A DNA stretch of 64,000 nt. Origin: Arthrobacter sp. CDRTa11 (GTDB lineage Bacteria > Actinomycetota > Actinomycetes > Actinomycetales > Micrococcaceae). The stretch is from NCBI RefSeq assembly GCF_026427775.1, contig NZ_CP044532.1, forward strand, positions 4,898,001 through 4,962,000. Reading direction: 5' to 3'. The notes below the pieces were generated by a model. That model was not told the DNA's origin. It saw only the letters and a list, made by a program, of their open reading frames with translations, and did no database searches. Shown here piece by piece: positions 16,375 through 35,577 of this stretch. The position numbers were made by a program, and so were the translations under genes. The stretch's first letter is position 1. Every line of letters begins with the position of its first letter.

Positions 16375-16393
16375 CCGTTACCCCAAGGACCCC

Positions 16394-17557
16394 ATGCCAA
16401 CCCCTGCATTTTCCGCTGCCCAGAAGGCTGCCCGCACCGAAGTCGGGGCCCTCGACGTGACTGGCCCGGTGACCGCCGCGACCGCTGACGTGGCACCGGC
16501 AGCCCATGATCTGCCGCAGCATGCCGCCCTGGCGGTTGCCGTCCGCGACGGCCTGGTGGAAAGCGTGCACTACGGCTCGGTCATTGCCACCGCTCCGGAT
16601 GGTTCGATCCTTGCGGCGGCCGGCGATCCCCTCCGCCCGTTCTATCCGCGTTCCTCGCTCAAGCCGCTGCAGGCCGTAGCCATGGTCCGGGCCGGGCTGG
16701 AACTCCCGGCCGATCTGCTGGCCCTCGCTGCCGCCAGCCACTCCGGTGCTGCTAAGCACCGCGACGGCGCCCTGCGGATCCTGGAACAGCACGGCCTCAC
16801 GGCCAGCGACCTGGAAAACAGCACCGACCTTCCCTACGGCATCAGTGAACGCGAAGAATGGCTTCGTTCGGGAGGGCGGGCAACCCAGCTGGCCCAGAAT
16901 TGCTCCGGCAAGCACGCCGCCATGGCAGCCACGTGCGTCATCAACGGCTGGCCTGTGCGCGGCTACCTTGAGCCGTCCCACCCGCTGCAGCAGTTCGTGG
17001 CCCAAACCATTATCGAGTTGACGGGCGAGCAGCCGTTCGCCTACAGCACGGACGGCTGCGGCACCCCGCTCCTGGCCTTAACACTCCCCGGCATGGCGCG
17101 CGCCTTCGGCCGGATCGGCCGGGCCAGCGCCCCTGCAGGCACCACAAGCGCCGCTGCGGGCAACACGAAGACCGTCACATCCGACGACGGCGGGACACTG
17201 CCGCTGACGGCAGAAGCCGCCGTTGGCCGTGCCATCCAGCTGCACCCGGACATGGTGGCCGGCGACCACCGGGACGTCACCGAACTGATGCACCTGCTGC
17301 CCGGTACCGTGGCCAAGGACGGCTTTGAAGGGATTCAGCTGGTGGGCCTGCCCGACGGCCGCGCCGTAGCCGTGAAGATCGCCGACGGCGCCGACCGCGC
17401 CCGGATGCCCGTCACCGTGCGCGTCCTCAAGGCGCTGGGTGAGGACACCGCGTCCCTCGCCGGCATTGCCAGTGCCCCCGTGTTGGGTGGAGGCCGCCAG
17501 GTAGGGCGGCTGCTGTCCACTGACTTTTTGTCCACGCCCGTCAAAGAAGCCGCGTGA
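16394..17557 (+). CDS. L-asparaginase (COG4448 family)
   Basis: The 387-residue protein belongs to the bacterial asparaginase II family of COG4448/PF06089, distinct from the AnsA/AnsB type. Family motifs include VESVHYGSVIATAPDG, FYPRSSLKPLQAVAMV, ASHSGAAKHRDGAL, AQNCSGKHAAMAATC and STDGCGTPLLALTL. It should hydrolyse L-asparagine to aspartate and ammonia in the cytoplasm. About 50 residues of Ala/Thr-rich sequence precede the conserved start, so the real start could be internal; I kept the ATG at 16394, which lies soon after the regulator. The gene is second in the operon regulator-asparaginase-aspartase-permease, with 8 bp to the aspartase start. Confidence 0.92.
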   Translation: MPTPAFSAAQKAARTEVGALDVTGPVTAATADVAPAAHDLPQHAALAVAVRDGLVESVHYGSVIATAPDGSILAAAGDPLRPFYPRSSLKPLQAVAMVRAGLELPADLLALAAASHSGAAKHRDGALRILEQHGLTASDLENSTDLPYGISEREEWLRSGGRATQLAQNCSGKHAAMAATCVINGWPVRGYLEPSHPLQQFVAQTIIELTGEQPFAYSTDGCGTPLLALTLPGMARAFGRIGRASAPAGTTSAAAGNTKTVTSDDGGTLPLTAEAAVGRAIQLHPDMVAGDHRDVTELMHLLPGTVAKDGFEGIQLVGLPDGRAVAVKIADGADRARMPVTVRVLKALGEDTASLAGIASAPVLGGGRQVGRLLSTDFLSTPVKEAA

Positions 17558-17565
17558 GGACCCCC

Positions 17566-19092
17566 ATGACCACCCCCGATACCAGTGACGCCATCAAGGC
17601 CGCAGCCTCAACAAAGGCAGCGGACGGGATGGCGGCAACCTCCGCTACCGGCTTTGCCACACCCCCCGGTGTTGGCAAGAAAGTGTCTACGCGTTCTGAG
17701 CATGATCTGCTTGGTGACCGGGACGTCCCGGCGGAGGCTTACTGGGGCGTGCATACCCTGCGCGCGGTGGAAAATTTCCCCATCACCGGCCAGCCGCTGT
17801 CCTCGAACATGCACCTGGTCCGCGGCCTGGCCGCGGTCAAACAGGCCGCGGCCCGCACCAACCTCGAACTCGGCCTCCTGGACCCCGAACGCGCCGCCGC
17901 GATCGAACAGGCCTGCACCGACGTGATGAACGGCCACTACGCAGACCAGTTCGTCGTGGACGTCATCCAGGGCGGCGCCGGGACCTCCTCAAACATGAAC
18001 GCCAACGAGGTCATCGCCAACCGGGCCCTGCAAATCCTCGGCCACGCCAAAGGCGAATACACCCGCCTGCACCCCAACGACCACGTCAACCTCTCCCAGT
18101 CCACCAACGACGTCTACCCCACCGCCGTGAAACTGGGCACCATCTTCGCCGTCAAGGAACTCCTCGCCGCGCTCGAAGAACTCGAAGAAGCCTTCGCCGC
18201 CAAAGCCCTGGAATTCCGCACCGTCGTCAAAATGGGCCGCACCCAACTCCAGGACGCCGTGCCCATGACCCTGGGCCAGGAATTCGGCACCTACGCCATC
18301 ACCATCGGCGAAGACCGGCTCCGGCTCGCCGAAGCAAACCTGCTCATCCACGAAATCAACCTCGGCGCCACCGCCATCGGCACCGGCCTGAACGCCCCCG
18401 CCGGCTACACCGAAGCCGCCTGCCGCCACCTCGCCCAAATCACCGGCCTGCCCCTGGTCACCGCGCCGGACCTGATCGAAGCCACCCAGGACGTCGGCGC
18501 GTTCGTCCACCTCTCCGGCGTCCTCAAACGCGTCGCCGTGAAACTCTCCAAAACCTGCAACGACCTGCGCCTGCTCTCCTCCGGCCCGCGCGCCGGCTTC
18601 GGCGAAATCAACCTCCCCGCCGTCCAGTCCGGCTCCTCCATCATGCCCGGCAAGATCAACCCCGTCATCCCGGAAGTAGTCTCCCAGGTCGCCTACGAAG
18701 TGATCGGCAACGACGTCACCATCACCATGGCCGCCGAAGCCGGGCAACTCCAACTCAACGCCTTCGAACCCATCATCGTCCACAGCCTCCACAAGAGCAT
18801 CTCCCACCTCCAGGCAGCCTGCACCACCCTCACCGCACGCTGCATCCGAGGCATCACCGCCAACACTGAACACCTGCGCCTGACCGTCCAACAATCCATC
18901 GGCCTGGTCACCGCACTGAACCCGCACCTGGGCTACACCACGGCCACCGCCATCGCCCAGGAAGCACTCGCCACCGGCAAAGGCGTCGCCGAACTCGTCC
19001 TCGAACACGGACTGCTCACCGACGCGCAGCTCCAGGAACTCCTCAGCCCCGAACGCCTGGCAAACCTCACCAAACGCGCCACCCAGCAATAA
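17566..19092 (+). CDS. aspA: Aspartate ammonia-lyase
   Basis: The 508-residue enzyme converts L-aspartate to fumarate and ammonia, feeding the TCA cycle after the asparaginase. The fumarase/aspartase signature [11 protein letters not shown] is intact at about residue 356, with [19 protein letters not shown] and [17 protein letters not shown] upstream. I chose the ATG at 17566, with GAGGA 5 bp upstream; a GTG at 17554 overlaps the asparaginase stop. A Ser/Thr/Ala-rich extension of about 40 residues precedes the usual start. From roughly 17,750 to the end, codons are almost all C-ending (GCC, ACC, CTC), more extreme than in neighbouring genes, so that a long false frame appears on the other strand. 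Confidence 0.95.
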
Positions 19093-19154
19093 CAGCAAGA
19101 GCACTAATAAAAGCCCCACCTGATAGTCCCCACCCCAAGAGAAAAAGGACTCCC

Positions 19155-20708
19155 GTGACACAGCCCCCAGTGGCCGCCCAGCAAAAAGCGGCCATCTCCG
19201 ACCACACCATTCCAGCGCACGCCCACGCCTCCGAAGCAACCCTGCATCTGGAGGACGAGGGCTACCACAAGGGCCTTAAGCCCCGCCAGGTCCAGATGAT
19301 CGCGATCGGCGGCGCCATCGGCACCGGCCTGTTCATGGGTGCCGGCGGCCGCCTTGCCTCCGCAGGCCCCGCCCTGATCATCAGCTACGCAGTCTGTGGC
19401 TTCTTCGCCTTTATGATCCTCCGGGCCCTGGGCGAACTGGTCATGCACCGGCCGTCCTCCGGTTCCTTCGTGTCATATGCCCGCGAATTCTTCGGTGAGA
19501 AGGCAGCGTTCGTCACCGGCTGGCTCTACTGGCTTAACTGGGCGATGACGGCGATTGTGGACATCACCGCCGTCGCGCTTTACATGAACTTTTTCAAGAA
19601 GTACGTACCGGCCATCGCAGATGTGCAGCAGTGGATTTGGGCGCTGCTGGCCCTCGTTCTGGTCCTCGGCCTGAACCTGGTTTCCGTCAAGGTGTTCGGC
19701 GAGCTTGAGTTCTGGTTCGCCCTCATCAAGGTGGTTGCCCTGGTGAGCTTCCTGATCATTGGCATCTACTTCGTCATCTTTGGCACTCCGGTGGAGGGCC
19801 AGGAAGTTGGCTTCACGCTGATCGCCGACAACGGCGGCATGTTCCCGAATGGCCTGCTGCCGGCCATTGTGGTGATGCAGGGTGTGCTGTTCGCCTACGC
19901 CTCCATCGAGCTGATCGGTACCGCCGCCGGTGAAACCGAGAACCCGGAAAAGATCATGCCGAAGGCCATCAACACTGTGGTCCTGCGTATCGCTGTGTTC
20001 TACGTCGGTTCCCTGATCCTGCTTTCGCTGCTGCTCCCGTTCACGGCCTACAAGGCCGGCGAAAGCCCGTTTGTCACCTTCTTCGGCTCCATCGGCGTGG
20101 AGGGCATTGACGCGATCATGAACCTCGTGGTGCTCACGGCGGCGCTGTCTTCGCTGAACGCCGGGCTGTACTCCACGGGACGCATCATGCGCTCCATGTC
20201 GCTGGCCGGCTCGGCCCCGAAGTTCGCCGGACGCATGAACAAGGCCGGTGTCCCCTACGGCGGCATCGCGCTGACCGCAGTGGTGGCTGTCCTTGGTGTG
20301 GTCCTGAATGCGATCGTTCCGGCGGAAGCGTTCGAGATTGTCCTGAACGTCGCCTCGCTGGGCATCATCAGCACCTGGGCCATGATCGTCCTGTGCCAGA
20401 TGCAGCTGGCCAAGCTCGCCAAGCGTGGAGAGGTACTGCGTCCGGCCTTCCGGATGCCCGGCGCCCCGGTGACCGGCTGGCTTACGCTCGCATTCCTTGC
20501 CGCGGTGCTGGTCATGATGGCCTTCGACTCCCCGGCCGGAACCTGGACTGTCGCTTCACTGGTGGTCATCATTCCGGCCCTGATGCTCGGCTGGTACCTC
20601 TGCCGCGACCGCGTCCTGGAAATCGCCAAGGTCCGCGACGGCCACACTGGGCCGTACCCCCTGGTGGCTAATCGTCCGGCTCCCGGTACCCGCAAGGACG
20701 GCAAATAA
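19155..20708 (+). CDS. Amino-acid permease (asparagine/GABA type)
   Basis: The 517-residue transporter is an APC-superfamily amino-acid permease with about 12 membrane segments. The first helix carries [20 protein letters not shown], the conserved substrate-binding glycine motif, followed by [25 protein letters not shown] and [19 protein letters not shown]. The N-terminus is hydrophilic. It most resembles AnsP (asparagine) and GabP. The operon suggests import of asparagine or aspartate; related amino acids are possible. The GTG start at 19155 is preceded by AAAAAGGACTCCC. It is the last gene of the operon, and a strong terminator follows at 20738-20787. Confidence 0.93.
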
Positions 20709-20798: not shown

Positions 20799-20813
20799 AA
20801 ACATCAGATGTAT
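20799..20813. promoter_or_regulatory. Operator palindrome upstream of fucose-pathway regulator
   Basis: AAACATC-A-GATGTAT differs at one symmetric position from a perfect palindrome, and matches the perfect site AAACATC-G-GATGTTT at 29004-29018. It ends 18 bp upstream of the regulator start codon, a place suited to autorepression. Confidence 0.75.
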
Positions 20814-20831
20814 GGCCGCTAAGATGGAGCC

Positions 20832-21503
20832 ATGGCAGTCACTGATGAAGCGATCGGCAAGATCAAGGACATGCTCCTTCGGGGCGAACTCAAGGCCGGC
20901 GACCGCCTGCCCCCGGAGAAGGAGCTCAGCGACCGGCTGGGCCTCTCCCGGAGCTCCCTGCGCGAGGCAGTCAAGGCATTGGAGCTCATCAAGGTGCTGG
21001 ACGTCAGGCGCGGGGACGGCACCTATGTCACCAGCCTGGACGCGAAGCTGCTCAACGAGGCCGTGGCTTTTGTGGTGGAACTTCATCAGGACAAGTCCAT
21101 CCTTGAGCTCTTCGAGGTCCGACGTATTCTCGAACCCGCCACCGCTTTTATCGCCACCGGCAAGATCGGGGCCGGCGAACTCCTTGAACTGAGCGCCACC
21201 ATGGAGGGCATCGACGAGAACACCGACGTGGAGGAACTGGTCGCCCATGACCTGGAGTTCCACCGCATCATCAGCAGGGCCGCGGGCAACGCGTATTTGG
21301 AAAGCCTGCTGGATGCCCTGTCCGGCAGCACGGTGCGGGCCCGCATCTGGCGCGGGCTCACGCAGGACCGCGCAGTTGCGCACACCCTTGCCGAACACAA
21401 GGCCATTGCCGATGCCCTTGAACGCGGCGACGCGGAACTTGTCAGGGCGCTTGTAACCGTCCACATCAGCGGCGTCGAGAGCTGGCTGAGGCAGGCACTC
21501 TAA
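20832..21503 (+). CDS. FadR-type (FCD) GntR regulator, fucose-pathway cluster
   Basis: This 223-residue protein has a winged HTH (MLLRGELKAGDRLPPEKELSDRLGLSRSSLREAV, wing RRGDGTYV) and an FCD domain with the typical metal/effector residues in AHDLEFHRII, EHKAIADAL and VHISG. It is likely a repressor released by a sugar acid. The operator AAACATC-N-GATGTTT lies immediately upstream and again between the two divergent sugar operons at 29 kb, which ties this gene to the pathway; the effector (fuconate, KDF or another acid) is not known. It ends 107 bp from the convergent substrate-binding-protein gene with a terminator between them. Confidence 0.9.
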   Translation: MAVTDEAIGKIKDMLLRGELKAGDRLPPEKELSDRLGLSRSSLREAVKALELIKVLDVRRGDGTYVTSLDAKLLNEAVAFVVELHQDKSILELFEVRRILEPATAFIATGKIGAGELLELSATMEGIDENTDVEELVAHDLEFHRIISRAAGNAYLESLLDALSGSTVRARIWRGLTQDRAVAHTLAEHKAIADALERGDAELVRALVTVHISGVESWLRQAL

Positions 21504-21515
21504 AGAGGGAACAGA

Positions 21516-21545
21516 AAAGGCCCGCTGCGTCAGCAGCGGGCCTTT
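21516..21545. terminator. Bidirectional terminator between convergent genes
   Basis: AAAGGCCCGCTGC (21516-21528) and GCAGCGGGCCTTT (21533-21545) form a perfect 13-bp stem with a GTCA loop, with A-rich and T-rich ends, so it can serve both the regulator and the ABC operon. Confidence 0.9.
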
Positions 21546-21610
21546 CCCATCCCATCAGACTGCGCCAGCCCGGCAGGATGCTGCCGGGCTGGCTGGCTGG
21601 TTGGCAGGAC

Positions 21611-22606
21611 CTACTGGTAGAGGTTCGGTTTGATCTTCTCCGAGTCAATGTTCGTGGCGTCGTACCAGTAGAACCCGGTATCCACCACCTTCTCCAGCTT
21701 GTCGCCCTTGATCGCGGCTACCGCAGCCTTCACGGTTTCATAGCCGATTCCCACCGGGTTCTGCGTCACGGCACCTGCCATTAGACCGGACCGGATGGCG
21801 TCGATCTGGGCTTTGCCCGAATCGAAGCCGACAATGGTCAGCTTGCCTTTGAGGCCAAGTTCCTCCACAGCCTTGACCACGCCGATGGCCGAACCCTCAT
21901 TGGTGCCGTACATGCCCTTCAGGTTGGGGTTGGCCGTCACAATGGCCTTGGCCGCATCCGCGGAGAGGAGCTGATCGCCGCCGGCATACTGGATGGCCAC
22001 GATCTTGACGTCCGGGTGGTTCTTCTCGATGTATTCCTTGAAGCCGTCCCGCCTGTCCGTACCCGACTTGGAGGTCTGGTCGTGGCCGATGATGGCGATC
22101 TCGCCCTTGCCGCCAATGAGCTCGGCCAGGTGTTTGGCGGCCTCCGCAGCGGCAGCCTTGTTGTCCGTGGATGCCGTGGTGACGGGAATGTCCGAGTCCA
22201 CGCCGGAGTCGAAGGCAACCACCGGGATGTTCTTGCCCTTGGCCTGTTCCAGCAGCGGCGTGGCTGCCTGTGAGTCGAGGGCAGCAAAACCGATGGCGGC
22301 CGGTGATTTGCCCAGGGCCGTGGTCAACATCTGGATCTGCTGGTCCACGTCCTTCTCGGTGTTGGGACCCTCGAAGCTGACTTCGACGTCGAACTCCTTG
22401 GCAGCCTGGTCAGCGCCCTGCTTCACGGCCTGCCAGAACTGGTGCTGGAACCCCTTGGAAACGATGGCGATGTACGGCTTGGCTCCGCCGGCGGCCGTTC
22501 CGGCCGGCGTTCCTGCCGGTGCCTCGCAGCCGGCGATTGCCACCACGCCCAGAGCCAGGCCGGACAAGGTGAGGAAACTGCGGCGGTCAAAAGTGGGCTT
22601 GTTCAT
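21611..22606 (-). CDS. Ribose-type ABC sugar-binding lipoprotein
   Basis: The 331-residue protein has a signal peptide with a twin-arginine-like start (DRRSFLTLSGLALGVVAIAGC) and a lipobox ending at Cys27, so it should be lipid-anchored outside the membrane. The mature part is a type-I periplasmic-binding domain (peripla_BP_4): YIAIVSKGFQHQFWQAVKQGADQAAKEF, VVAFDSGVDSD, IAIIGHD, GMYGTNEGSAIGVVKA, LTIVGFDSGK. It would deliver a sugar to the permease/ATPase encoded just upstream. It is the last gene of the long minus-strand operon, with 90 bp before it and the shared terminator after it. L-fucose is the predicted cargo from context. Confidence 0.92.
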   Translation of the reverse strand: MNKPTFDRRSFLTLSGLALGVVAIAGCEAPAGTPAGTAAGGAKPYIAIVSKGFQHQFWQAVKQGADQAAKEFDVEVSFEGPNTEKDVDQQIQMLTTALGKSPAAIGFAALDSQAATPLLEQAKGKNIPVVAFDSGVDSDIPVTTASTDNKAAAAEAAKHLAELIGGKGEIAIIGHDQTSKSGTDRRDGFKEYIEKNHPDVKIVAIQYAGGDQLLSADAAKAIVTANPNLKGMYGTNEGSAIGVVKAVEELGLKGKLTIVGFDSGKAQIDAIRSGLMAGAVTQNPVGIGYETVKAAVAAIKGDKLEKVVDTGFYWYDATNIDSEKIKPNLYQ

Positions 22607-22696
22607 TCGTGAAAACTCCGTTGTTTTTTGATGGGGAATGGAGATGGTTGGGATGGTGCGTTGCCGGGGGATGCCGTCCGGCGGCGGCGGGAGGCG

Positions 22697-23734
22697 CTAC
22701 GTGGCGGCCTCCTTCCGGCGAAGCATGTCCAGGTAGACGGCCACCAGGATCACGACGCCAATGGCCACGTTCTGCCACTCCTGCGGCACCGAAATGACCC
22801 GCAGGCCATTGGTGAGGACGGACATGATGAGGGCACCGATCACCGTTCCCACGATGGAGCCCTTGCCTCCGGCCAGGGAGGTTCCACCGATCACGACGGC
22901 GGCAATCGCCTGCAGCTCATATCCCATGCCCTGTCCGGGCTGCGCCGAGTTAAGCCGGGCAGCGATGATCACGCCGGCCAGCCCGGTGAAGGCGCCCGCG
23001 GCGGTGTAGATCCAGAGCTTCCAGCTGCGCACATTAATGCCGGACAGTGCCGTGGCCTCCTCGTTGGACCCGATGGAGAAGGTGTAGCGGCCCAGGAGGG
23101 TCTTGCTCATCACCACGCCCGCTATGGTGGCAACGGCGAAGAAGATGAAGACAGCGTTCGGAATCACCAGTCCGACGATCGGTTTACCGAGGGCGAGGTT
23201 GGAAAAGCCTTCGGTCCCGGTGAAGTAGATGGGCTTGGTTCCCGAGACCACCAGAGCCATGCCCTGGGCCACCAGCATGGTTGCCAGGGTGGCGATGAAG
23301 GGCGGGATTTTCAGGAACGAGATGAGGAAGCCGTTCACTGCCCCGATCAGCGCACCCATCAGGATGCCGCCCACCACCCCGGCCCACAGCGGCAGGCCCA
23401 GGTAGGTCAGCACCACGCCCACCATCACTGAGCACAGACTCATTCCCGTGCCCACCGAAAGGTCGATGCCGCCCGTGATGATGACGAACGTGGCGCCAAG
23501 CGCCAGCAGTCCGATGACAACGGTGGAGAGGAGGATGTCCGAGAGGTTGCCGGGCAGCAGGAACCGCGAATTCATGGCTCCAAAGAAGACCACCAGGACA
23601 ATCAGCGAGCCGAAGGCCAAGAGCTGCTGCAGGGAGGAGCGAAGCCGCAGGCTAAGGCCGTTTCCCCGCGTGGGCTGGGACTTCGCCGTCAGCACCTTGG
23701 ATTCTTTCGGTGTGGGGGTTTGTACGATGCTCAT
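22697..23734 (-). CDS. Sugar ABC transporter permease
   Basis: The 345-residue protein is an RbsC-type BPD_transp_2 permease with roughly 8-10 membrane helices, including VVIGLLALGATFVIITGGIDLSVG, the family hallmark, and GINVRSWKLWIYTAAGAFTGLAG. I chose the ATG at 23734, overlapping the ATPase stop by 4 bp (ATGA), over an upstream in-frame ATG that would add a basic leader. It forms the membrane channel with the ATPase; a homodimer is expected because only one permease gene is present. Confidence 0.92.
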   Translation of the reverse strand: MSIVQTPTPKESKVLTAKSQPTRGNGLSLRLRSSLQQLLAFGSLIVLVVFFGAMNSRFLLPGNLSDILLSTVVIGLLALGATFVIITGGIDLSVGTGMSLCSVMVGVVLTYLGLPLWAGVVGGILMGALIGAVNGFLISFLKIPPFIATLATMLVAQGMALVVSGTKPIYFTGTEGFSNLALGKPIVGLVIPNAVFIFFAVATIAGVVMSKTLLGRYTFSIGSNEEATALSGINVRSWKLWIYTAAGAFTGLAGVIIAARLNSAQPGQGMGYELQAIAAVVIGGTSLAGGKGSIVGTVIGALIMSVLTNGLRVISVPQEWQNVAIGVVILVAVYLDMLRRKEAAT

Positions 23735-25263
23735 GAGGTTGGTGCTCCTGTGGTGATGGAGACCCGCCGGGTGGCAAGTTCCATGATGTTTTCCTGGGTG
23801 GCTTCGGCGTTGGTGAGGAAGCCGGTGATTCGCCCTTCGCACATGACGGCGATCCGATGGGACAGGCGCAGGACTTCGGGGAGTTCCGAGGAGATCATGA
23901 TGATCGCCTTGCCCTCAGCTGCGAGCTCGTTCAGCAGTTTGTAGATTTCGTCCTTGGCGCCCACGTCAATGCCGCGGGTGGGTTCGTCAAAGATGAGGAT
24001 GTCGCAGTCCTTGACGAGCCATTTGGCGATGACCACCTTCTGCTGGTTGCCGCCGGAAAGATTCCGGGCCAGCTGCTTGATGGACGGCGTCTTGATCCGA
24101 AGCTTCCGCGAGTATTCGTCGGCCGTGCGGCGCAGGGACCCGTCATTGATGAATCCCGCCGTCGAATTTTTTGCCAGCGAGGAGAGCATGATGTTCTCCT
24201 TGACGTCGCGTTCCAGCAGAAGGCCAAGGTGCTTCCGGTCCTCGGAGAGGTAGCCGATTCCCAGCTTCGCCGCGGCCGCCGGGTTAGGGATCCGTTCGTC
24301 GGCCCCGTTTACCTGCAGCTGCCGGAAGCTGGCCTTGTCCGCGCCCACCAGTGCCCTGGCAACCTCCGTCCGGCCGGCGCCCATCAGACCGGCGAACCCA
24401 AGGATTTCGCCCCGGTGCAGCTCAAAGCTGACGTCCTTCAGCAGGGACGGAGTGGACAGCCCGGCAACAGCCAGTACGACGTCGTCCGCGCCGTGTGCTT
24501 CTTCGGCGGCCGGCCGCTGTTCGCCGGAGATGGAACGGCCCACCATCAGCGAGATGACCTCCCGCATGGTGCTCGCTGCGGTATCCACAGTGTCCACATA
24601 TTCGCCGTCGCGGATAACGGTGATGCGCTGGGAAATCTGCTTGAGTTCATCCATACGGTGCGAAATGTAGATGACGCCGGTGTCAGCCGAAACGAAGCCG
24701 CGAATCAGTTCGTGCAGGGTGGCCACCTCGGCATCATTGAGGGCGGCGGTGGGCTCGTCCATGATGATCACCTTGGAGTCGTGGCTCAATGCCTTGGCGA
24801 TCTCCACCATCTGCTGCTTGGCCACTGTCAGGTCCCCGCAGCGCTCCCTGGGGTCCAGCTTGAGGCTCATCCGGTCAAACAGGTCCTGGGTTTTCCGGTT
24901 GAGGGCGCGCTCGCTGAGGATTCCATAGCGCCGGGGCTCGCGGCCGATGTAGATGTTCTGGGCCACTGTCAGGTCCGGCATCAGGTTGAACTCCTGATGG
25001 ATGATGCTGATACCCAGCTCCTGGGCGTGCTTTGGTCCGGCCGGCGTGAAGGCCACACCGTTGAGTTCGAAGGTTCCCTGGTCGGGAACGTAGATGCCGG
25101 AGAGCAGCTTCATCAGCGTTGACTTGCCCGCACCGTTTTCGCCTACCAGCGCCAGCACTTCACCGTGCCGAAGGTCCAGCTGCATGTTGTGCAAAGCCCT
25201 GACCCCGGGGAATGTCTTGCCCACCCCATGCACGGACAACAGCGTTGTTTGATCCGCGGTCAT
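23731..25263 (-). CDS. Sugar ABC transporter ATPase, two nucleotide-binding domains
   Basis: This 510-residue RbsA/XylG-type protein has two ABC domains. The first has Walker A GENGAGKST (about residues 40-48), Q-loop IIHQEFNLMPDLT and Walker B VIIMDEPTAAL; the C-terminal one has a GLMGAGRTEVAR degenerate Walker A, the signature NLSGGNQQKVVIAKWL and ILIFDEPTRGIDVG. A degenerate second Walker A is usual in this family. It energises sugar uptake with the neighbouring permease and binding protein. The start overlaps the lactonase stop by 4 bp, so the ABC genes are translated together with the catabolic genes. Confidence 0.94.
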   Translation of the reverse strand: MTADQTTLLSVHGVGKTFPGVRALHNMQLDLRHGEVLALVGENGAGKSTLMKLLSGIYVPDQGTFELNGVAFTPAGPKHAQELGISIIHQEFNLMPDLTVAQNIYIGREPRRYGILSERALNRKTQDLFDRMSLKLDPRERCGDLTVAKQQMVEIAKALSHDSKVIIMDEPTAALNDAEVATLHELIRGFVSADTGVIYISHRMDELKQISQRITVIRDGEYVDTVDTAASTMREVISLMVGRSISGEQRPAAEEAHGADDVVLAVAGLSTPSLLKDVSFELHRGEILGFAGLMGAGRTEVARALVGADKASFRQLQVNGADERIPNPAAAAKLGIGYLSEDRKHLGLLLERDVKENIMLSSLAKNSTAGFINDGSLRRTADEYSRKLRIKTPSIKQLARNLSGGNQQKVVIAKWLVKDCDILIFDEPTRGIDVGAKDEIYKLLNELAAEGKAIIMISSELPEVLRLSHRIAVMCEGRITGFLTNAEATQENIMELATRRVSITTGAPTS

Positions 25264-26252
25264 GCTCTCACCCCTTCTTCCTTGCTTGTAGTTGCCGCTT
25301 CCGGCATGTCTTCTGTGTGCTGCGGCCCGTAGATGCGCTGCGCCGTGGCTTCAAGGAAGGCGTGCCGACCCGCAGCATCCAGCTCCTCGGTCAGCTCCAA
25401 CAGCACATCCAACGTGCGCTGGTACGGCGCCCCGAGCGTGCTGACCGGCCAGTCCATCCCGATCATGAGCCTTTGAGGCCCAAAGCTTGCCAAGGCCTCT
25501 TCCCAAACCGGCCGCAAAGCCGGGGCTGAATATTCCGTCCCTGGTATGTACAGGCCGGATACCTTTGCCACTGTGTTGGGCAACCCGGCCAGGGCCCGGA
25601 ACTCCCGGCGCCAGCGGTCCAGCCCGTCATCTGCTGCCCCTGCGTCAGGCCCGGCGGTGGCCCCGAGCGGCGGCTTACCCAGGTGATCCAGCACAACTGT
25701 CAGCTCCGGAAGGTCGCAGGCAAGATCGGCGGCCCGGCCCAGATGCCGGGGAAAGGCATCCGGAATGTCCAGCGCCAGGCCCCTGGCCGCCACCAGCCGC
25801 AAAGACTCGCGGACCTCTGGCAGCTCCAGGAAGTTGTCCCGTGGATCGTCATGGATCAGGTGGCGGACGCCCCGGAACTTCGGGTTCCGGGCAAACCGTT
25901 CCAGCGCAGCTGCTGCCTGCTCCGGGTGTTCCAAAGGAATCCAGCCGACGACAGCGAGGACCCAGTCGTTCCGGTCAGCAACGGCGAGCATGGATTCCGT
26001 GTCGGCAAGGGTGTCGTCAGCCTGCACCAGTACCGCGGCGCTGACTCCGGCGTCGGCGATGGTCTGTTGGGCCTCCGCTTCCCCAAAGCTGCGGAAGAGC
26101 GCTCCGTGCTGGGGTCCCAGCCACGAATAGGGGCGGGCGGCGCCGTCCTGTTCCAAGGCGTCCTGTTCCGAGGATCGGCCGGCGTCTGGCAGCCCTTTTG
26201 CAGGCTGGTCCCCTGACTGCAGGTCCCATAAGTGGAGGTGCGAGTCGATCAT
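25260..26252 (-). CDS. Amidohydrolase-family L-fuconolactonase
   Basis: The 330-residue protein starts with the metal-binding MIDSHLHLWDL (HxH) and continues with VRHLIHDDPRDNFLE, VVLDHLGKPPLG and LMIGMDWPVSTLG, the pattern of amidohydrolase_2 sugar-lactonases such as L-fuconolactonase and L-rhamnono-1,4-lactonase. It would open the lactone formed by the aldose dehydrogenase. The ATG at 26252 overlaps the dehydrogenase stop by 4 bp; an upstream in-frame ATG is not needed. The assignment to fucose rather than rhamnose rests on the neighbouring fuconate dehydratase. Confidence 0.85.
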   Translation of the reverse strand: MIDSHLHLWDLQSGDQPAKGLPDAGRSSEQDALEQDGAARPYSWLGPQHGALFRSFGEAEAQQTIADAGVSAAVLVQADDTLADTESMLAVADRNDWVLAVVGWIPLEHPEQAAAALERFARNPKFRGVRHLIHDDPRDNFLELPEVRESLRLVAARGLALDIPDAFPRHLGRAADLACDLPELTVVLDHLGKPPLGATAGPDAGAADDGLDRWRREFRALAGLPNTVAKVSGLYIPGTEYSAPALRPVWEEALASFGPQRLMIGMDWPVSTLGAPYQRTLDVLLELTEELDAAGRHAFLEATAQRIYGPQHTEDMPEAATTSKEEGVRA

Positions 26253-27241
26253 GACGGGATCAGCTCCTGCCGCAAGAGCTCCGCCCAAAGTTCGCCGGGA
26301 ACCTCTTCAGCCATCCGAGCCGCGTTATCCCGGATCTGGTCAGGGGACGTTGCCCCCACTGTCACATTGACCACGGCGGGGTGGCGCAGTCCGAACTGCA
26401 GGGCCGCCGTCGGAAGTTCCACACCAAAGCGTGCGCAGATGCCGGCGAGCTGGCGTGCGCGCTCAATCTTCGCGTGGGGCGCCTGCCCGTAGTTATAGTG
26501 CGCGTCATCAGGCACGTCCTGCCGCGCCAGCAGTCCGGAATTGTAGGCTCCAACATTTACCACTCCTGTACCCTTTTCCACGCAGCGCTCCAGCAGCGGA
26601 ACCTGCGGCTGCTCCAGCAGCGTGTAGCGTCCGGCCAGCATCACCAGGTCCAGGCTGGCCGCCTCGACGCATTCCAGCGCTGCCTCCGCCGAGTTGATCC
26701 CCACGCCGATGGCGCGGACCAGCCCTTCGGAGCGCAATTTCTCCAGCGCGGGCAATCCGTCGCGGATGCCGGCGGCGAGATCATGGACATCGGCGTCGTG
26801 CAGGTACGCAATGTCCACGTGGTCAAGGCCGAGGCGCTCGAGCGACTCCTCCAGGCTTTGCCGGATACCCTGTTCGGAAAAGTCCCAGATGCGCCTGCTG
26901 ACGGCGGGCACGTCGAAGCCTTCGGGGTCGCGCGGCACATCCTGAGCAGTACGGATGTCGGGCGGCGTATCACCCGTCAGAACGCCCTGGTGTGGGACCA
27001 GGAGGCGTCCCACCTTGGTGGACAGCACAAATTCATGCCTCGGCTTTCCCTGAAGCACCCGGCCCAGCCGGCGCTCCGACAGGCCCAGTCCGTAGTGGGG
27101 GGCCGTGTCGAAGTACCTGATGCCGGCATCCCACGCCGCTTCAACAATGGCGGTGGCCCTGCTGTCCGGCATGGCGCGGTAGAGGTTGCCGATTCCCGCT
27201 CCCCCGAAGCCCAGCGAGCCAAGGCGCAGTGGCGCGCTCAC
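26249..27241 (-). CDS. Aldo/keto reductase, L-fucose (D-threo-aldose) 1-dehydrogenase
   Basis: The 330-residue protein starts [22 protein letters not shown] and has the aldo/keto-reductase catalytic residues in FDTAPHYGLGLSERRLG (Asp, Tyr), STKVGRLLVPH (Lys) and IAYLHDADVHD (His). This subgroup contains D-threo-aldose/L-fucose 1-dehydrogenases that make the lactone with NAD(P). The GTG at 27241 overlaps the mutarotase stop by 4 bp (GTGA) and gives the family start; a longer upstream open frame exists but encodes an improbable basic leader. The gene sits between mutarotase and lactonase, matching the biochemical order. Confidence 0.85.
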   Translation of the reverse strand: MSAPLRLGSLGFGGAGIGNLYRAMPDSRATAIVEAAWDAGIRYFDTAPHYGLGLSERRLGRVLQGKPRHEFVLSTKVGRLLVPHQGVLTGDTPPDIRTAQDVPRDPEGFDVPAVSRRIWDFSEQGIRQSLEESLERLGLDHVDIAYLHDADVHDLAAGIRDGLPALEKLRSEGLVRAIGVGINSAEAALECVEAASLDLVMLAGRYTLLEQPQVPLLERCVEKGTGVVNVGAYNSGLLARQDVPDDAHYNYGQAPHAKIERARQLAGICARFGVELPTAALQFGLRHPAVVNVTVGATSPDQIRDNAARMAEEVPGELWAELLRQELIPS

Positions 27242-27552
27242 GGCAGCTCCCAAACGAGCGGGATGCCGGAGTCTTGTCCGCTGTAATCGTCCTGTACTTC
27301 CAGGAGCTCGGCCATCCGCGCCTGCCAGGGGACGTTCGCTGGATGCTGGGCGAGTTCGCGGCGCATGCGCTTGTAGTCCTCCACTTCCACCAGGTGGATC
27401 AGCTCGCGGCCGCTGCGCCAGATCCGCCAATTAACGACGCCGGCTCCCTTCAGGGCTGCCACGAGCTCGGCCGGTATGGCGTCATGGGCGTCCGCATATG
27501 CCTCGGCGGCACCCGCCTTCAGCCTGGTGTGCAGGACGATGGTCTCAGGCAT
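27238..27552 (-). CDS. L-rhamnose mutarotase-family protein
   Basis: The 104-residue protein belongs to the RhaM/DUF718 mutarotase family: [55 protein letters not shown] is the usual pattern, with His and Trp at the expected sites (VNWRIW, active site in VLHTR). It interconverts alpha and beta anomers of a 6-deoxy-hexose, helping the dehydrogenase choose its anomer. The start ATG at 27552 overlaps the end of the dehydratase gene by 8 bp; the upstream extension is a different frame of that gene. In fucose clusters this small enzyme often substitutes for FucU. Confidence 0.9.
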
Positions 27553-28912
27553 CAGCTGCGGCTTCTTTGAGGGGGAATTCCGGCACCAGCTCGAAACTGC
27601 CGTCAGCAGCTGATGTGGCGCTCCATTCCACGCCGTCCGGGTAACTGTAGGCAGCCAGAGTATTCCGGTGCATCTCCGCGCCGGCGCCTGGTGCTGACGG
27701 TGGCCAGTAACAGCCATCGTGAACGTCCACGGGGGTGATGAAATGCTCGTGGAGGTGGTCAACGAATTCAATCATACGGCCGTCTTTATCCGCCGAGACA
27801 GCAATGAAATCGAACATGGACAGATGCTGGACTGCTTCACAGAGGCCAACTCCGCCGGCATGGGGGCAAACCCGGACACCGAACTTTGCGGCGAGCAGCA
27901 GGATCGCGATGTTCTCGTTCACACCACCTACGCGGGCAGCGTCGATCTGGAGCACTTCCAGGGATTGCGCCTGCAGCAGCTGCTTGAACATCACCCGGTT
28001 GTGGACGTGCTCCCCGGTAGCCACGGGAATGGGCGCGACGCCCCGGGCAATGGCGGCGTGGCCCAGGATGTCGTCCGGGCTGGTGGGTTCTTCAATCCAG
28101 GCGATGTCGTAGGGTGCCAGGTGCCCCATCCATTCAATCGCGTCCTGCACATCCCAGCGCTGGTTGGCGTCGACGGCGATCTTGATGTTTGGTCCCACCG
28201 CTTCACGGGCTACACGAACACGGCGGAGGTCGTCCTCCAGCGAAGCGCCAACCTTCAGCTTGATCTGGCCGAAGCCATCCGCCACGGCCTCCTTGGCCAG
28301 CCGCGTCAGCTTCTGGTCGCTGTACCCGAGCCAGCCTGGCGTTGTGGTGTAGCCGGCGTAGCCTTCCGCGAGGAGGCGGGCGCGGCGCTCAGCCCGCCCC
28401 GGCTCGGCCTTACGGAGGATCTCCAGTGCCTCCTCGGGGGTGAGCGCGTCACTCAGGTAACGGAAATCAACCAGCGCCACGATCTCCTCAGGGCTAAGAC
28501 CCGCCAGCAAATCCCAGAGCGGCAGCCCGGCGCGCTTGGCTTTCAGGTCCCACAGTGCGTTGATCACGGCGCCAATCGCCATGTGCATCACACCTTTTTC
28601 CGGGCCCAGCCACCGCAGCTGGGAATCGTGGGCCAGCAGCTTCCACGTGGTTCCCATGTCAGCCAGCAGCTCTTCAGCGTTCTTGCCAAGGATGTGCGGA
28701 CGAAGGGCATCAATCGCGGCCGCCTCCACCTCATTTCCGCGTCCAATGGTGAAGACGAATCCGTGGCCTTCGTGCCCGTCTCCGGCATCGGTGCCGATGA
28801 TCAGGTAGGCAGCCGAGTAATCGGGGTCCGGGTTCATGGCGTCGGAACCGTCGAGGTCCCTGGACGTGGGAAAGCGGATGTCAAAGGTCTCTACCGCGGT
28901 AATGATGCTCAC
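27545..28912 (-). CDS. L-fuconate dehydratase (enolase superfamily)
   Basis: The 455-residue protein is a mandelate-racemase subgroup enolase-superfamily enzyme. The N-terminal capping domain has [20 protein letters not shown], a hallmark of fuconate dehydratase. The barrel has the lysine in IKLKVGAS, the metal-binding Asp in [11 protein letters not shown], the Glu in IEEPTSPDD and the later Glu and His of ATGEHVHNR and CPHAGGVGL. It removes water from L-fuconate to give 2-keto-3-deoxy-L-fuconate. The GTG at 28912 has GAGGAG 5 bp upstream. It is the first gene of the minus-strand operon, driven from the 28.9-29.1 kb control region. Confidence 0.93.
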
Positions 28913-29003
28913 AATGCTCCTCGTGTGCAGCCGTTGGAAGGGCCGCTTGCTGGCCGGCCCGGCAAATGATGACGCTCCCGGGCCTGAAATCTGAGATCAA
29001 CCT

Positions 29004-29018
29004 AAACATCGGATGTTT
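29004..29018. promoter_or_regulatory. Perfect 15-bp operator palindrome in divergent control region
   Basis: AAACATC-G-GATGTTT is a perfect palindrome between the fuconate dehydratase gene (minus) and the diketo-acid hydrolase gene (plus). It matches the operator before the FCD-GntR gene at 20799-20813. Confidence 0.8.
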
Positions 29019-29067
29019 CACTTGTCAATGGGCTGGTTTTGCGTACTATTAGGAAAACGGTTGAAGC

Positions 29068-29082
29068 AAAGCTCGGATGTTA
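29068..29082. promoter_or_regulatory. Second, weaker operator in the same control region
   Basis: AAAGCTC-G-GATGTTA has a near-complete right half and a 5-of-7 left half. Its centre is 64 bp from the perfect site, close to six helical turns, which would suit cooperative binding or looping. Confidence 0.45.
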
Positions 29083-29116: not shown

Positions 29117-29995
29117 ATGGATATCAAGCTGGCCCGGCTCGGTGAACGAGGCAAAGAAGAACCTGTGGTGCTCGTGGCTGACGGGAGCGGGGGCCACAAA
29201 TACTTCAGCCTTGGTGCCCTGACGCAGGACATCGACGGCGCCTTCCTCGCTTCTGACGGCGTAGAACGGACCCGGCAGGCTCTTACGGCGGGGGAACTGG
29301 CGGAGGTTTCAGCGTCCGGGGTTCGGATCGGGGCACCCGTTGCCCGTCCCGGCTCAATCATTTGCATCGGGATGAATTACGCGGCGCATGCCGCAGAATC
29401 AGGCTCGGCTCCGCCGGAAATCCCGGTCGTATTCCTTAAGCCTTCCAACACTGCCAGTGGCCCTTTCGACGCGGCACCCATCCCGCCGTCGTCGGAAAAA
29501 TACGACTGGGAAGTGGAGCTGGGCGTTGTTATTGGACGGGAAGCGAGGTACCTTTCCGATCCCAGCCAGGCCTTGGAATGCGTGGCCGGATACCTCGTGG
29601 CCAACGATCTCTCGGAGCGGAACTATCAGCTGCCAGGTGCCGCAGGCCAGTGGACGAAAGGCAAGTCCCTGCCCGCCTCGACACCGCTTGGCCCGTGGCT
29701 CGTCCCGGCTGACCAGATCAACGCGGGCCGCCTGCAGCTCCAGACCCGGGTCAATGGCGAGGTCCGGCAGGACTCCTCCACGGCCGACCTGATTTTTGAC
29801 GTCCCCACGCTGGTACACCACGTCAGCCAATACATGCTCCTGGAACCTGGAGATGTCATCCTCACCGGCACTCCGGAGGGGGTGGCCCTGTCCGGCCGGT
29901 TCCCGTATCTCCAGCCGGGGGACGTGGTGGAACTGGACATCGAAGGCCTGGGCCGCCAACGCCAGGAGTTCTACCGTGAAGGAGCATCGCAGTGA
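29117..29995 (+). CDS. FAH-family diketo-acid hydrolase (2,4-diketo-3-deoxy-L-fuconate)
   Basis: The 292-residue protein is a fumarylacetoacetate hydrolase-family enzyme: IGMNYAAHAAES near residue 80, VVFLKPSNTASGPFD, the metal-site glutamates in YDWEVELGVVIGREARY, then VANDLSERNYQ, KSLPASTPLGPWL and DVILTGTPEGVAL. In L-fucose and L-rhamnose diketo pathways this family cleaves the 2,4-diketo-3-deoxy acid into pyruvate and lactate. The ATG at 29117 follows AAGGAAACTT. It heads the plus-strand operon, overlapping the next gene by 4 bp. Substrate is inferred from the cluster. Confidence 0.88.
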   Translation: MDIKLARLGERGKEEPVVLVADGSGGHKYFSLGALTQDIDGAFLASDGVERTRQALTAGELAEVSASGVRIGAPVARPGSIICIGMNYAAHAAESGSAPPEIPVVFLKPSNTASGPFDAAPIPPSSEKYDWEVELGVVIGREARYLSDPSQALECVAGYLVANDLSERNYQLPGAAGQWTKGKSLPASTPLGPWLVPADQINAGRLQLQTRVNGEVRQDSSTADLIFDVPTLVHHVSQYMLLEPGDVILTGTPEGVALSGRFPYLQPGDVVELDIEGLGRQRQEFYREGASQ

Positions 29996-31133: not shown

Positions 31134-32510
31134 ATGGACAACAGCGCCCTGCAGTCTCTACAGGAAAAAGTACGGGGAACCGTCATCACCGCAGATCACA
31201 CTGGTTATGACGCCGCCCGATTGGTCTACAACGGCATGATCGACAAGCGCCCTGCAGCCGTACTCCAGGTTTCCCAGGTGGCCGACGTGATTTCGGCAGT
31301 GAATTTCGCACGGGACGAAGGAATGGATATTGCCATTCGGGGCGGCGGCCACAGTGCTCCGGGCTTCGGCACCTGCGACGGCGGCCTGGTGATTGATTTC
31401 GTCAATTGCCGGGGAGTGCGGGTGGATCCCTCCACCGCTACCGCCAGGGCTGAAGGCGGCACTACGTGGGCCGACTTCAACTACGCAACCAACGCCTTCG
31501 GTCTCGCCACAACCGGGGGCATCATCGGTTCCACGGGGGTGGCCGGGCTGACTCTCGGCGGCGGCATCGGCTACCTTTCCCGGAAATACGGCCTGTCCTG
31601 CGACAACCTGAAATCCGCTGACGTGATCACGGCAGACGGAAAATTCCGCCACGCCAGCACCACTGAGAACGATGACTTGTTCTGGGCTCTTCGCGGGGGA
31701 ACCGGAAACTTCGGCGTGGTGACCTCCCTTGAGTTCAGCCTGCATCCGGTGGACGTGGTGTACGGCGGGGTGGTCATCTACCTGCTGGAGCATATGGAAG
31801 CCGTTGGGCAGCTGTATCGCGACTACATCGCCACCGCTCCCGAAGAAATGGGCATTTTCCTGGGGGTTCACCAGGGCCCTCCCGTCCCCTTCCTGCCGGA
31901 GGAGTACCACGGGCGCCCCGTGGCAGTAATAGTGGGCGCCTGGACCGGCCCCCACGACGAAGGGCAGCGTCAGTGGCAAAAATTCCTGGATGTCGCGCCG
32001 GTGGCGGGTGCATTTGTGGGCCCTCTCCCCTACCCCGCCCTCAACACCCTCTTCGACCCGCTCCTTCCTAAGGGACTCCAGGCGTACTGGAAGGCCGAAT
32101 TCTTGCCCTCCCTGGGTGACGAGGCCATCCGCGTTGCCCAGGAATTCGGCAAAGGCATACCCAGCGAGGAGTCTGCGAACCACTTCTACCCCATCAACGG
32201 CGCCGTCCAACGGGTACCTGCGGACGCTACGGCCTTTCCCTACCGGGGTGCGGATTTTGCGGCGGTGATCGCGGGCATGTGGCAAGATCCAGCGGACAAC
32301 GATGCGAACGTCGCGTGGGTCAGGGACTACTGGTCCGGGCTGCATCCGCACAGCGCCGGCGGCGGCTATATAGGGTTTATGGACGCCGACGACCAGTCCA
32401 GGATCCGCGACAACTATGCAGGAAACTACCAGCGGTTGGCCAGCATTAAGGCCAAGTACGATCCTGACAACCTGTTCCACATCAACCAGAACATCAAACC
32501 CGCAGCCTGA
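31134..32510 (+). CDS. Berberine-bridge-type FAD oxidoreductase
   Basis: The 458-residue enzyme has a PCMH-type FAD-binding domain with IRGGGHSAPGFGTCDGGLVID, where the histidine is the expected covalent flavin site, then TTGGIIGSTGVAGLTLGGGIGYLSRKYGLSCDNL and LRGGTGNFGVVTSLEF. The C-terminal BBE segment (YDPDNLFHINQNI) is present. It resembles 6-hydroxynicotine oxidase and glucooligosaccharide oxidase-type enzymes, which oxidise amines or sugars with O2 and release H2O2. No signal peptide is visible. The ATG at 31134 is preferred, with GGAG six bases upstream; an ATG at 31122 is the alternative. Substrate unknown. Confidence 0.9.
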   Translation: MDNSALQSLQEKVRGTVITADHTGYDAARLVYNGMIDKRPAAVLQVSQVADVISAVNFARDEGMDIAIRGGGHSAPGFGTCDGGLVIDFVNCRGVRVDPSTATARAEGGTTWADFNYATNAFGLATTGGIIGSTGVAGLTLGGGIGYLSRKYGLSCDNLKSADVITADGKFRHASTTENDDLFWALRGGTGNFGVVTSLEFSLHPVDVVYGGVVIYLLEHMEAVGQLYRDYIATAPEEMGIFLGVHQGPPVPFLPEEYHGRPVAVIVGAWTGPHDEGQRQWQKFLDVAPVAGAFVGPLPYPALNTLFDPLLPKGLQAYWKAEFLPSLGDEAIRVAQEFGKGIPSEESANHFYPINGAVQRVPADATAFPYRGADFAAVIAGMWQDPADNDANVAWVRDYWSGLHPHSAGGGYIGFMDADDQSRIRDNYAGNYQRLASIKAKYDPDNLFHINQNIKPAA

Positions 32511-32649
32511 GCCGCTCCGCTTAACGCAACGCTCCCGCAACCTTGCGCGGGAGTTGATCGCCTATGCTCAGCAGAGCGCCTCGGCGCGTCGCGATCAACG
32601 TTCAACGTTCAACGAGCGATTCAATGACGAACCACCCGGGAGACACGGC

Positions 32650-35527: not shown

Positions 35528-35545
35528 GAGGTCATGTCCACCTGG
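35424..35545 (-). ncRNA. Possible bridge-RNA region of the IS110 element
   Basis: In characterised IS110-group elements a bridge RNA is transcribed from the non-coding left end upstream of the transposase. This 5' flank is the corresponding place. The candidate is positional only; I cannot define stem loops matching target and donor with certainty. Confidence 0.25.
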
Positions 35546-35577
35546 CCGCCGCGTCTAATGCAGCTGCATTGCGGCGG
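35546..35577. repeat. Strong hairpin upstream of IS110 transposase
   Basis: CCGCCGC and GCGGCGG pair perfectly, and the 14-bp palindrome AATGCAGCTGCATT lies inside, with a four-base one-sided bulge (GTCT). It sits about 120 bp upstream of the transposase start, outside the provisional element end. Confidence 0.5.

What the first reader, a model, noticed from the sequence alone, without database searches (positions are those of the whole stretch)
20799..29082. One palindromic operator links a GntR-FCD regulator to a divergent sugar-acid gene set 8 kb away
AAACATC-N-GATGTTT occurs perfect at 29004-29018, weaker at 29068-29082 (64 bp, about six turns, away) and one mismatch from perfect at 20799-20813, directly before the regulator at 20832. 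Three sites at the expected places are hard to explain by chance. The regulator lies at one end of the cluster, beyond the ABC operon.
Basis: partly seen in the sequence, partly recalled or inferred. Interest (0 to 1): 0.72.

Follow-up and report, generated by a model that had tools for sequence, protein, structure and literature searches.

The report
L-fucose regulon with paired operators
A soil bacterium appears to switch its L-fucose digestion genes with one repressor protein and a short DNA palindrome that recurs at matching places in many relatives; the parts are of a familiar kind, but I found no description of this regulon, and the fixed spacing of its paired sites can be tested.

Summary
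In the 5.16 Mb genome the palindrome occurs with at most one mismatch at exactly two places: the divergent promoter (29004-29018) and the regulator's promoter (20799-20813). The genes are the oxidative L-fucose pathway; the dehydratase matches solved L-fuconate dehydratase at 656 bits. One of three two-mismatch sites precedes the genome's only GH29 fucosidase match. In 16 related genomes, 24 of 28 sites with at most one mismatch precede fucose genes or the regulator. The main site scores at least 13/14 in 26 of 26 homology-chosen dehydratase-hydrolase regions, but at most 10/14 before 13 of 13 dehydratase paralogues with no close regulator beside them. It fills the spacer between TTGACA and the -10 in 34 of 34 regions, implying repression by occlusion. 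The weak second site lies 63, 64 or 74 bp away in 30 of 34. Binding, inducer and oligomer state are untested. New member of a known kind: a GntR/FCD sugar-acid regulon, with an operator lacking the usual GT/AC core.

The parts
20799..20813 (.). Operator O3 (AAACATCAGATGTAT) in the regulator's own promoter
   Evidence: 22 of 30 regulator loci (own included) have a site of at least 10/14 at 11, 12 or 18 nt before the start codon
20820..20825 (+). Putative -10 (TAAGAT) of the regulator, 6 nt before its ATG; implies a leaderless mRNA (inferred)
   Evidence: TANNNT exactly 6 nt before the start codon in 25 of 30 regulator loci, own included
20832..21503 (+). GntR/FCD regulator (PF00392 + PF07729), 223 aa; proposed L-fucose repressor
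   Evidence: nearest solved relative by sequence 2di3 (C. glutamicum LldR), 84 bits
21611..22606 (-). Sugar-binding protein of ABC transporter (PF13407)
22697..23842 (-). ABC permease (PF02653); ORF as listed, true start probably later since it overlaps the ATPase gene
23731..25263 (-). ABC ATPase (RbsA-like)
25260..26288 (-). Amidohydrolase, probable L-fuconolactonase
   Evidence: NCBIfam L-fucono-1,5-lactonase 158.5 bits, under its 400 cut-off; PDB 4dlf 85.7 bits
26249..27430 (-). Aldo/keto reductase, probable L-fucose dehydrogenase (ORF as listed)
   Evidence: PF00248; nearest solved relatives are L-galactose dehydrogenases, 134 bits
27238..27552 (-). Mutarotase (rhaM family); the ORF opens at 27771 but the family match and relatives begin near 27552
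27545..28912 (-). L-fuconate dehydratase, first gene of the long minus-strand operon
   Evidence: 656 bits to PDB 1yey/2hxt L-fuconate dehydratase
28999..29004 (-). Putative -10 TAGGTT of the dehydratase operon; its first T is the last operator base
   Evidence: TANNNT in this register in 27 of 34 regions
29004..29018 (.). Operator O1, perfect palindrome, nested between -35 and -10 of the dehydratase promoter
29022..29027 (+). Putative -35 TTGTCA of the hydrolase/SDR operon, overlapping the opposite -35
29023..29028 (-). Putative -35 TTGACA of the dehydratase operon, 18 bp from its -10
   Evidence: perfect TTGACA in 34 of 34 regions, spacer 17-19
29044..29049 (+). Putative -10 TACTAT of the hydrolase/SDR operon (16 bp spacer)
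29068..29082 (.). Operator O2, weaker and asymmetric, just downstream of the hydrolase promoter, 64 bp from O1
29117..29995 (+). FAH-family hydrolase, probable 2,4-diketo-3-deoxy-L-fuconate hydrolase
   Evidence: PF01557; 8gsr L-2,4-diketo-3-deoxyrhamnonate hydrolase 190 bits
29992..30765 (+). SDR, probable 2-keto-3-deoxy-L-fuconate dehydrogenase
   Evidence: PF13561/PF00106; next to the hydrolase in most relatives

Best explanation
The gene at 20832 encodes an FCD-type GntR repressor of an L-fucose regulon (a 'FucR' by function). Without fucose its dimer sits on O1 (29004), inside the -35/-10 spacer of the dehydratase/ABC operon and against the overlapping -35 of the divergent hydrolase/SDR operon, so that RNA polymerase cannot bind. 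A second dimer at the weaker O2 (29068), six helical turns away, closes the hydrolase start region and may help O1 through dimer-dimer contact. O3 (20799) gives autoregulation; a further site probably controls a distant GH29 alpha-L-fucosidase gene. An acid intermediate (L-fuconate or 2-keto-3-deoxy-L-fuconate most likely) binds the FCD pocket and releases DNA. SHOWN computationally: sites, pathway genes, conservation, promoter register, linkage of regulator and operator, fixed spacing of the divergon pair. INFERRED: binding, repression, effector, cooperation, metal in the pocket, leaderless mRNA.
For: Only two sites with at most 1 mismatch in 5.16 Mb. Exact 15-mer in 8 of 150 same-genus genomes (own included), 9 places: 8 between dehydratase and hydrolase, 1 directly before a GH29 fucosidase. 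26 of 26 homology-chosen dehydratase-hydrolase regions have at least 13/14; counting all 29 relatives fetched by dehydratase homology, 28 of 29. Control: 13 of 13 dehydratase paralogues (58-66%) with no close regulator beside them have at best 6-10/14 in 300 nt upstream. In the two 197-genome family searches the regulator (E at most 1e-40) is found in 29 of 30 genomes with a dehydratase of at least 70%, and in 1 of 14 with only a more distant one. 24 of 28 sites with at most 1 mismatch in 16 genomes: 15 between dehydratase and hydrolase, 1 between GH29 and hydrolase (G461), 3 ABC operons, 2 GH29, 1 GH95, 2 regulators; the reversed pattern gives 0 in all 16. Other families of the order: regulator in the same operon as the dehydratase with a 13/14 site ahead (L176, L179, L185, L187, L189) or divergent from the hydrolase with a 12-13/14 site between (L177, L183, L184). 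TTGACA-N17-19 with the operator nested, 34 of 34. FCD residues D140, H144, H189, H211 invariant in 26 of 26, matching by sequence the histidine metal site described for LldR and TM0439 (passages of PMC4746285).
Against: No binding or expression data. 5 of 30 regulator loci have no recognisable site before the regulator and 3 more only 9/14; 13 of 32 named loci have none of at least 11/14 there. In the order-wide set 10 of 24 loci show none near the regulator; none of these ten shows a dehydratase or hydrolase in the 1.5 kb flank held. O2 is missing in 4 of 34 regions (L006, L013, L037, L040). 4 of 28 sites with at most 1 mismatch precede or lie in other genes (amino-acid permease, trypsin-like, ruvB, MFS sugar transporter 271 bp off). 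12 of 31 fetched GH29 loci have no site of at least 11/14, and the own GH29 site is from a two-mismatch class that is not enriched. Activation rather than repression is not excluded for the hydrolase promoter, where O1 lies just upstream of -35.
Confidence: 0.86

Rival explanations
1. O1 and O2 act independently: each blocks its own promoter, and the constant distance only reflects that both flank the hydrolase promoter.
For: O1 lies in the dehydratase promoter and O2 beside the hydrolase start; the survey PMC4494728 found that double sites in divergons of structural genes only behave as separate sites (section 14). A systematic list of second sites also holds distances off the helical turn.
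Against: Inter-site distance is only 63, 64 or 74 bp in 30 of 30 divergons with both sites and in 37 of 37 genomes found with 57-87 allowed, while intergenic length runs 139-249 bp within the 64 group; the added 10 bp lies in different places in g24 and in L033 by alignment; 63/64 recurs beside a 35-36% regulator relative and in another family (L155-L157, L181).
Confidence: 0.45
2. The operator is read by some other regulator, for example the second FCD protein at 15619 beside the asparaginase operon, and the fucose-cluster FCD gene is incidental.
For: A second GntR/FCD gene lies 5 kb away; no binding data exist.
Against: Operator and this regulator co-occur, the regulator's own promoter carries the site, and in other families regulator and operator share one operon or divergon.
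Confidence: 0.04
3. The protein activates at least the hydrolase/SDR promoter, from O1 just upstream of -35, and represses the dehydratase promoter.
For: O1 ends 3 bp before TTGTCA; FCD activators exist (CitO, abstract and passages of PMC4746285).
Against: O2 lies downstream of the same promoter, a repressing position; the hydrolase -35 is lost in most of the g24 group while O1 and TTGACA of the other strand are kept.
Confidence: 0.12

Closest known systems
LldR, PdhR, DgoR and other FadR-subfamily (FCD) GntR repressors of hydroxy- and sugar-acid pathways
   Same: Domain make-up, FCD metal-site residues, palindrome of odd length centred in a promoter, acid catabolism next door
   Different: Far under the NCBIfam cut-offs (LldR 97.5 against 311); operator half-site ACATC instead of TGGTC (the latter recalled in full; GT core from PMC4494728)
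Non-phosphorylating L-fucose pathway of Xanthomonas campestris, and predicted FucR sites in fuc loci of mat bacteria (PMC5507952, passages)
   Same: Same enzyme steps; dehydratase 656 bits to the solved enzyme
   Different: ABC transporter and GntR/FCD regulator in Actinobacteria; the family and motif of that FucR are not in the passages I saw
Atu1419, tetrameric FCD repressor that loops between two palindromes (PMC7797058, passages)
   Same: Palindrome overlapping -10 or between -10 and -35, a degenerate second palindrome, two-site repression
   Different: VanR type; its sites are 190 and 109 bp apart, not 64; oligomer state here unknown
C. jejuni FucR (IclR family; PMC12566272, passages) and the DeoR-family fucose regulators named there
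   Same: Regulation of a fuc locus
   Different: Unrelated protein families

Membership tests
GntR superfamily, FadR/FCD subfamily | N-terminal GntR winged helix plus C-terminal FCD domain above gathering scores | tested here: met
   PF00392 61.4 bits (cut-off 27), PF07729 85.4 (24.3)
GntR superfamily, FadR/FCD subfamily | FCD metal-site residues (Asp/His) | tested here: met
   D140, H144, H189, H211 invariant in 26 of 26 aligned proteins; by sequence only, no metal shown
GntR superfamily, FadR/FCD subfamily | Canonical operator with GT...AC core (TKGT-N3-ACMA) | tested here: not met
   Core is ATC-N-GAT; consensus taken from PMC4494728 sections 5 and 10. That paper lists exceptions (NanR, BioR), so membership by protein stands. 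In many relatives the regulator's own site has one GACCA half
LldR / NanR / PdhR models | Score over NCBIfam cut-off | tested here: not met
   97.5/311, 87.7/260, 77.6/330
Non-phosphorylating L-fucose pathway | L-fuconate dehydratase | tested here: met
   656 bits to 2hxt/1yey over residues 3-436; by sequence, no assay
Non-phosphorylating L-fucose pathway | Dehydrogenase, lactonase, ketodeoxyfuconate dehydrogenase, diketo hydrolase | tested here: inconclusive
   Right families present, none over an NCBIfam cut-off in the rows shown; activity not testable here
Looping FCD tetramer (Atu1419-like) | Tetramer that bridges two palindromes | not testable with these tools

The most novel reading that the evidence does not exclude
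The regulator works as a dimer of dimers that bridges two operators held at whole helical turns (divergon 63/64 or 74 bp; elsewhere 84-87 and 94 bp) and so controls, from a gene 8 kb away, a divergon made only of structural genes - an arrangement that the published FadR-subfamily survey did not see in such divergons - using a half-site (ACATC) outside the GntR consensus.
Probability: 0.3. Interest if true: 0.5.

Novelty: new member of a known kind. Interest (0 to 1): 0.36.

Why it matters
It proposes a function, an operator and a regulon for a regulator group with relatives in 60 of 297 sampled genomes of its order (E at most 1e-55, 45% identity and up), ties fucosidases to intracellular fucose breakdown in soil actinobacteria, and offers natural spacing variants (64 and 74 bp, and a few others) for testing cooperative repression by FCD proteins. 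It also extends the DNA code of the GntR family to an ATC-N-GAT core.

Tried and rejected
Rejected: 22612-22626 as an operator (3 mismatches; it is the Shine-Dalgarno stretch of the binding-protein gene, and identical in L106 and L107, where it also lies at that gene's start). 56259 as an operator (no link to the cluster, two-mismatch class at background). 657672 (2 mismatches, before a GH43-like ORF) left open.

Tried and weakened: the idea that Lys instead of Arg at HTH position 28 (FadR Arg35) explains the A/T in place of G/C. No Arg occurs there in the 26 aligned proteins (K, T or A; M in L063), but L156, a 36% relative, has Arg there beside sites that keep the ATC core. The residue does not determine the operator.

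Weakened on re-check: helical phasing outside the divergon. Rayleigh p 0.0008-0.001 at 10.5-10.6 bp over 12 cases that I had collected, one of them out of phase (153 bp, L106); p 0.02-0.03 if each distinct value counts once (without the 153 and L181 cases, gave 0.00015). A systematic list in all held loci (primary at least 13/14, second at least 10/14, 30-160 bp apart) has 55 distinct segments: 42 at 63, 64 or 74, and 13 others at 52, 75, 77, 78, 84, 87, 87, 94, 101, 103, 120, 151, 153. Six of the 13 (77, 78, 101, 103, 120, 151) lie in or overlap coding sequence by the gene positions; the rest mix in-phase and out-of-phase values. Cases are related and gathered after the fact.

Own error found: the GH29a query was translated from the wrong strand, so its strand labels there are flipped and its identities too low; one search repeated it correctly for L113 and L115 (GH29 reads in the dehydratase direction). 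No count rests on those labels. One search also showed that G461 and L115 have GH29, not the dehydratase, next to the site.

Literature: searches listed no paper on a GntR/FCD fucose regulator in Arthrobacter or its kin; subscription papers, supplements and RegPrecise itself were not searchable. PMC3870299 (passages) has no GntR and nothing on Arthrobacter.
Full report
OBSERVATION. The window gives 5 matches at up to 3 mismatches against 0.79 expected. In the whole 5,161,232-base genome there is one perfect place and one place with a single mismatch, both being the reported sites; the three two-mismatch places are not above background, since the reversed control pattern gives 7 places. So O1 and O3 stand on their own, while O2 (3 mismatches) needs outside support.

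WHAT THE GENES ARE. The minus-strand run from 28912 to 21611 holds a dehydratase, a mutarotase, an aldo/keto reductase, an amidohydrolase and a ribose-type ABC transporter; the plus-strand pair is an FAH hydrolase and an SDR; the regulator at 20832 converges on the ABC end. The dehydratase matches the solved L-fuconate dehydratases with 656 bits over residues 3-436 of 455, the hydrolase matches L-2,4-diketo-3-deoxyrhamnonate hydrolase (190 bits, second to a 4-hydroxyphenylacetate-pathway enzyme at 199), the reductase's nearest solved relatives are L-galactose dehydrogenases (L-fucose is 6-deoxy-L-galactose), and the amidohydrolase matches the L-fucono-1,5-lactonase family below its cut-off. 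[quoted passage not shown] pathway order recalled, not assayed).

GENOME-WIDE SPECIFICITY. The own genome's only PF01120 (GH29 alpha-L-fucosidase) match starts at 57173, 122 bp after the two-mismatch site 57037-57051. Its promoter has TTGACA-N16-TAACAT with the -10 inside the operator, and a weaker site 85 bp upstream; relative G097 has the same arrangement at 86 bp. Among 150 same-genus genomes the exact 15-mer occurs in 8 (own included), at 9 places: 8 between dehydratase and hydrolase, and 1 directly before a GH29 gene. In 16 chosen relatives, sites with at most 1 mismatch number 28: 15 between dehydratase and hydrolase, 1 between GH29 and hydrolase (G461, which has no dehydratase there), 3 before ABC ATPase genes, 2 before GH29, 1 before GH95, 2 before the regulator, and 4 elsewhere (amino-acid permease, trypsin-like, inside ruvB, 271 bp from an MFS sugar transporter); the reversed pattern gives none. 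The 16 were picked because they carry the cluster, so this measures what else the motif hits, not how often it occurs. Not every fucosidase is included: 12 of 31 fetched GH29 loci have no site of at least 11/14, and most of the other 19 merely lie near the divergon.

CONSERVATION AND CONTROLS. Dehydratase homology (not the motif) brought in 29 relatives with loci. In 26 the hydrolase is adjacent and divergent, and all 26 have a site of at least 13/14; of the other three, two score 14/14 and one 10/14 before the dehydratase. All 17 remaining dehydratase rows were fetched as controls: 13 (58-66%) have no close regulator beside them (two have FCD proteins of 27-30%), and their best upstream score is 6-10; three (L155-L157) have a 35-36% regulator relative divergent to the dehydratase and a pair of sites with a CATC-N-GAT core (10-11/14) at 63, 64 and 63 bp; one (L158) has a 41% relative and a 13/14 site. 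In the two 197-genome family searches the regulator is present in 29 of 30 genomes with a dehydratase of at least 70% and 1 of 14 with only a more distant one.

REGULATOR-OPERATOR LINKAGE ELSEWHERE. Regulator relatives occur in 60 of 297 order genomes (E at most 1e-55). Of 24 newly fetched loci, 8 have the regulator in one operon with the dehydratase or divergent from the hydrolase with a 12-13/14 site at the expected promoter, 6 have an 11-12/14 site before the regulator, and 10 show none nearby. Among 32 named loci with at least 56% regulator identity (Arthrobacter, Paenarthrobacter, Cryobacterium, Labedella, Microbacterium, Amycolatopsis, Actinomadura, Catellatospora and unnamed MAGs), 19 have a site of at least 11/14 just before the regulator and 13 do not.

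PROMOTER ANATOMY AND MECHANISM. In 34 of 34 distinct intergenic regions a perfect TTGACA lies 17-19 bp (18 in 31) from the base where the dehydratase -10 begins, and that base is the last base of the operator; the -10 reads TANNNT in 27 of 34. The 34 include 7 relatives chosen by the exact motif and the window itself. The operator thus fills the spacer, the classic place for occlusion of RNA polymerase. On the other strand O1 ends 3 bp before TTGTCA of the hydrolase promoter in the window, and O2 lies just after its -10. The regulator's own promoter has TANNNT exactly 6 nt before the start codon in 25 of 30 loci, with a Shine-Dalgarno-like string in only 6, so its mRNA is probably leaderless. 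Its site is at least 10/14 in 22 of 30, 9/14 in the same register in 3, and absent in 5.

PAIRED SITES. A second site of at least 10/14 lies 64 (17), 74 (11) or 63 (2) bp from O1 in 30 of 34 regions; correlation with intergenic length is 0.38, and within the 64 group intergenic length runs from 139 to 249 bp. With 57-87 bp allowed, 37 of 395 family genomes matched, at 64 (16), 74 (19) or 63 (2), and the reversed pattern matched none. The extra 10 bp appear at different places in g24 and in L033 by alignment; G377, a g24 member, has 64. The pair recurs at 63/64 beside a 35-36% regulator relative (L155-L157) and in another family (L181). In other promoters the picture is looser: 75, 84, 85, 86, 87 and 94 are near whole turns, 153 is not, and a systematic list also holds off-turn values, mostly in coding sequence. 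The phase statistics are therefore suggestive only. The survey PMC4494728 (abstract, sections 5, 10, 14, 17 and passages read) reports that double sites in structural-gene-only divergons act separately; this family may be an exception. Atu1419 (PMC7797058, passages read) shows that an FCD tetramer can loop between two palindromes.

MOTIF. The GntR consensus needs GT...AC (PMC4494728); here the core is ATC-N-GAT, sharing only the T and C next to the centre with TGGTC-N-GACCA (the canonical full site is recalled). In many relatives the regulator's own site is a hybrid, AAACATC-N-GACCA(A/T)T, which suggests that the same protein reads both half-sites. The simple residue code (Arg at HTH position 28 for G) does not explain it, because L156 has Arg with the same core.

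VERDICT. A real, conserved L-fucose regulon of an ordinary kind, well beyond chance, of which I found no description in the library searched. The interesting and testable part is the fixed spacing of the strong and weak operator in the divergon.

Noticed in passing
window 15619-20708: A second GntR/FCD regulator followed by asparaginase, aspartase-like lyase and amino-acid permease genes: a likely separate asparagine/aspartate regulon with its own FCD regulator.
   Followed up: no
window 32416-33966: One 516-aa ORF joins a GNAT acetyltransferase domain to an AAA ATPase; its start overlaps the end of the previous gene and may be mis-set.
   Followed up: no
window 34215-37212: IS110-type transposase next to a DUF222 gene just beyond the fucose cluster.
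   Followed up: no
G000:C1:657672-657686 (L004 1501-1515): Two-mismatch operator-like site 156 nt before a GH43-like ORF (27.8 bits, below cut-off); could be a further target or chance.
   Followed up: partly
L050-L061, L063, L064, regulator promoters: The regulator's own operator has one non-canonical (ACATC) and one FadR-type (GACCA) half in these relatives (L058 has ACGTC); unexplained.
   Followed up: partly
L155-L158, L043: A 35-41% regulator relative divergent to a 57-70% dehydratase; in L155-L157 two CATC-core sites lie 63-64 bp apart: a sister system with the regulator inside the divergon.
   Followed up: partly
G461 (L210), L115: Relatives in which a GH29 fucosidase gene, not the dehydratase, is the first gene of the minus operon beside the site.
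   Followed up: no
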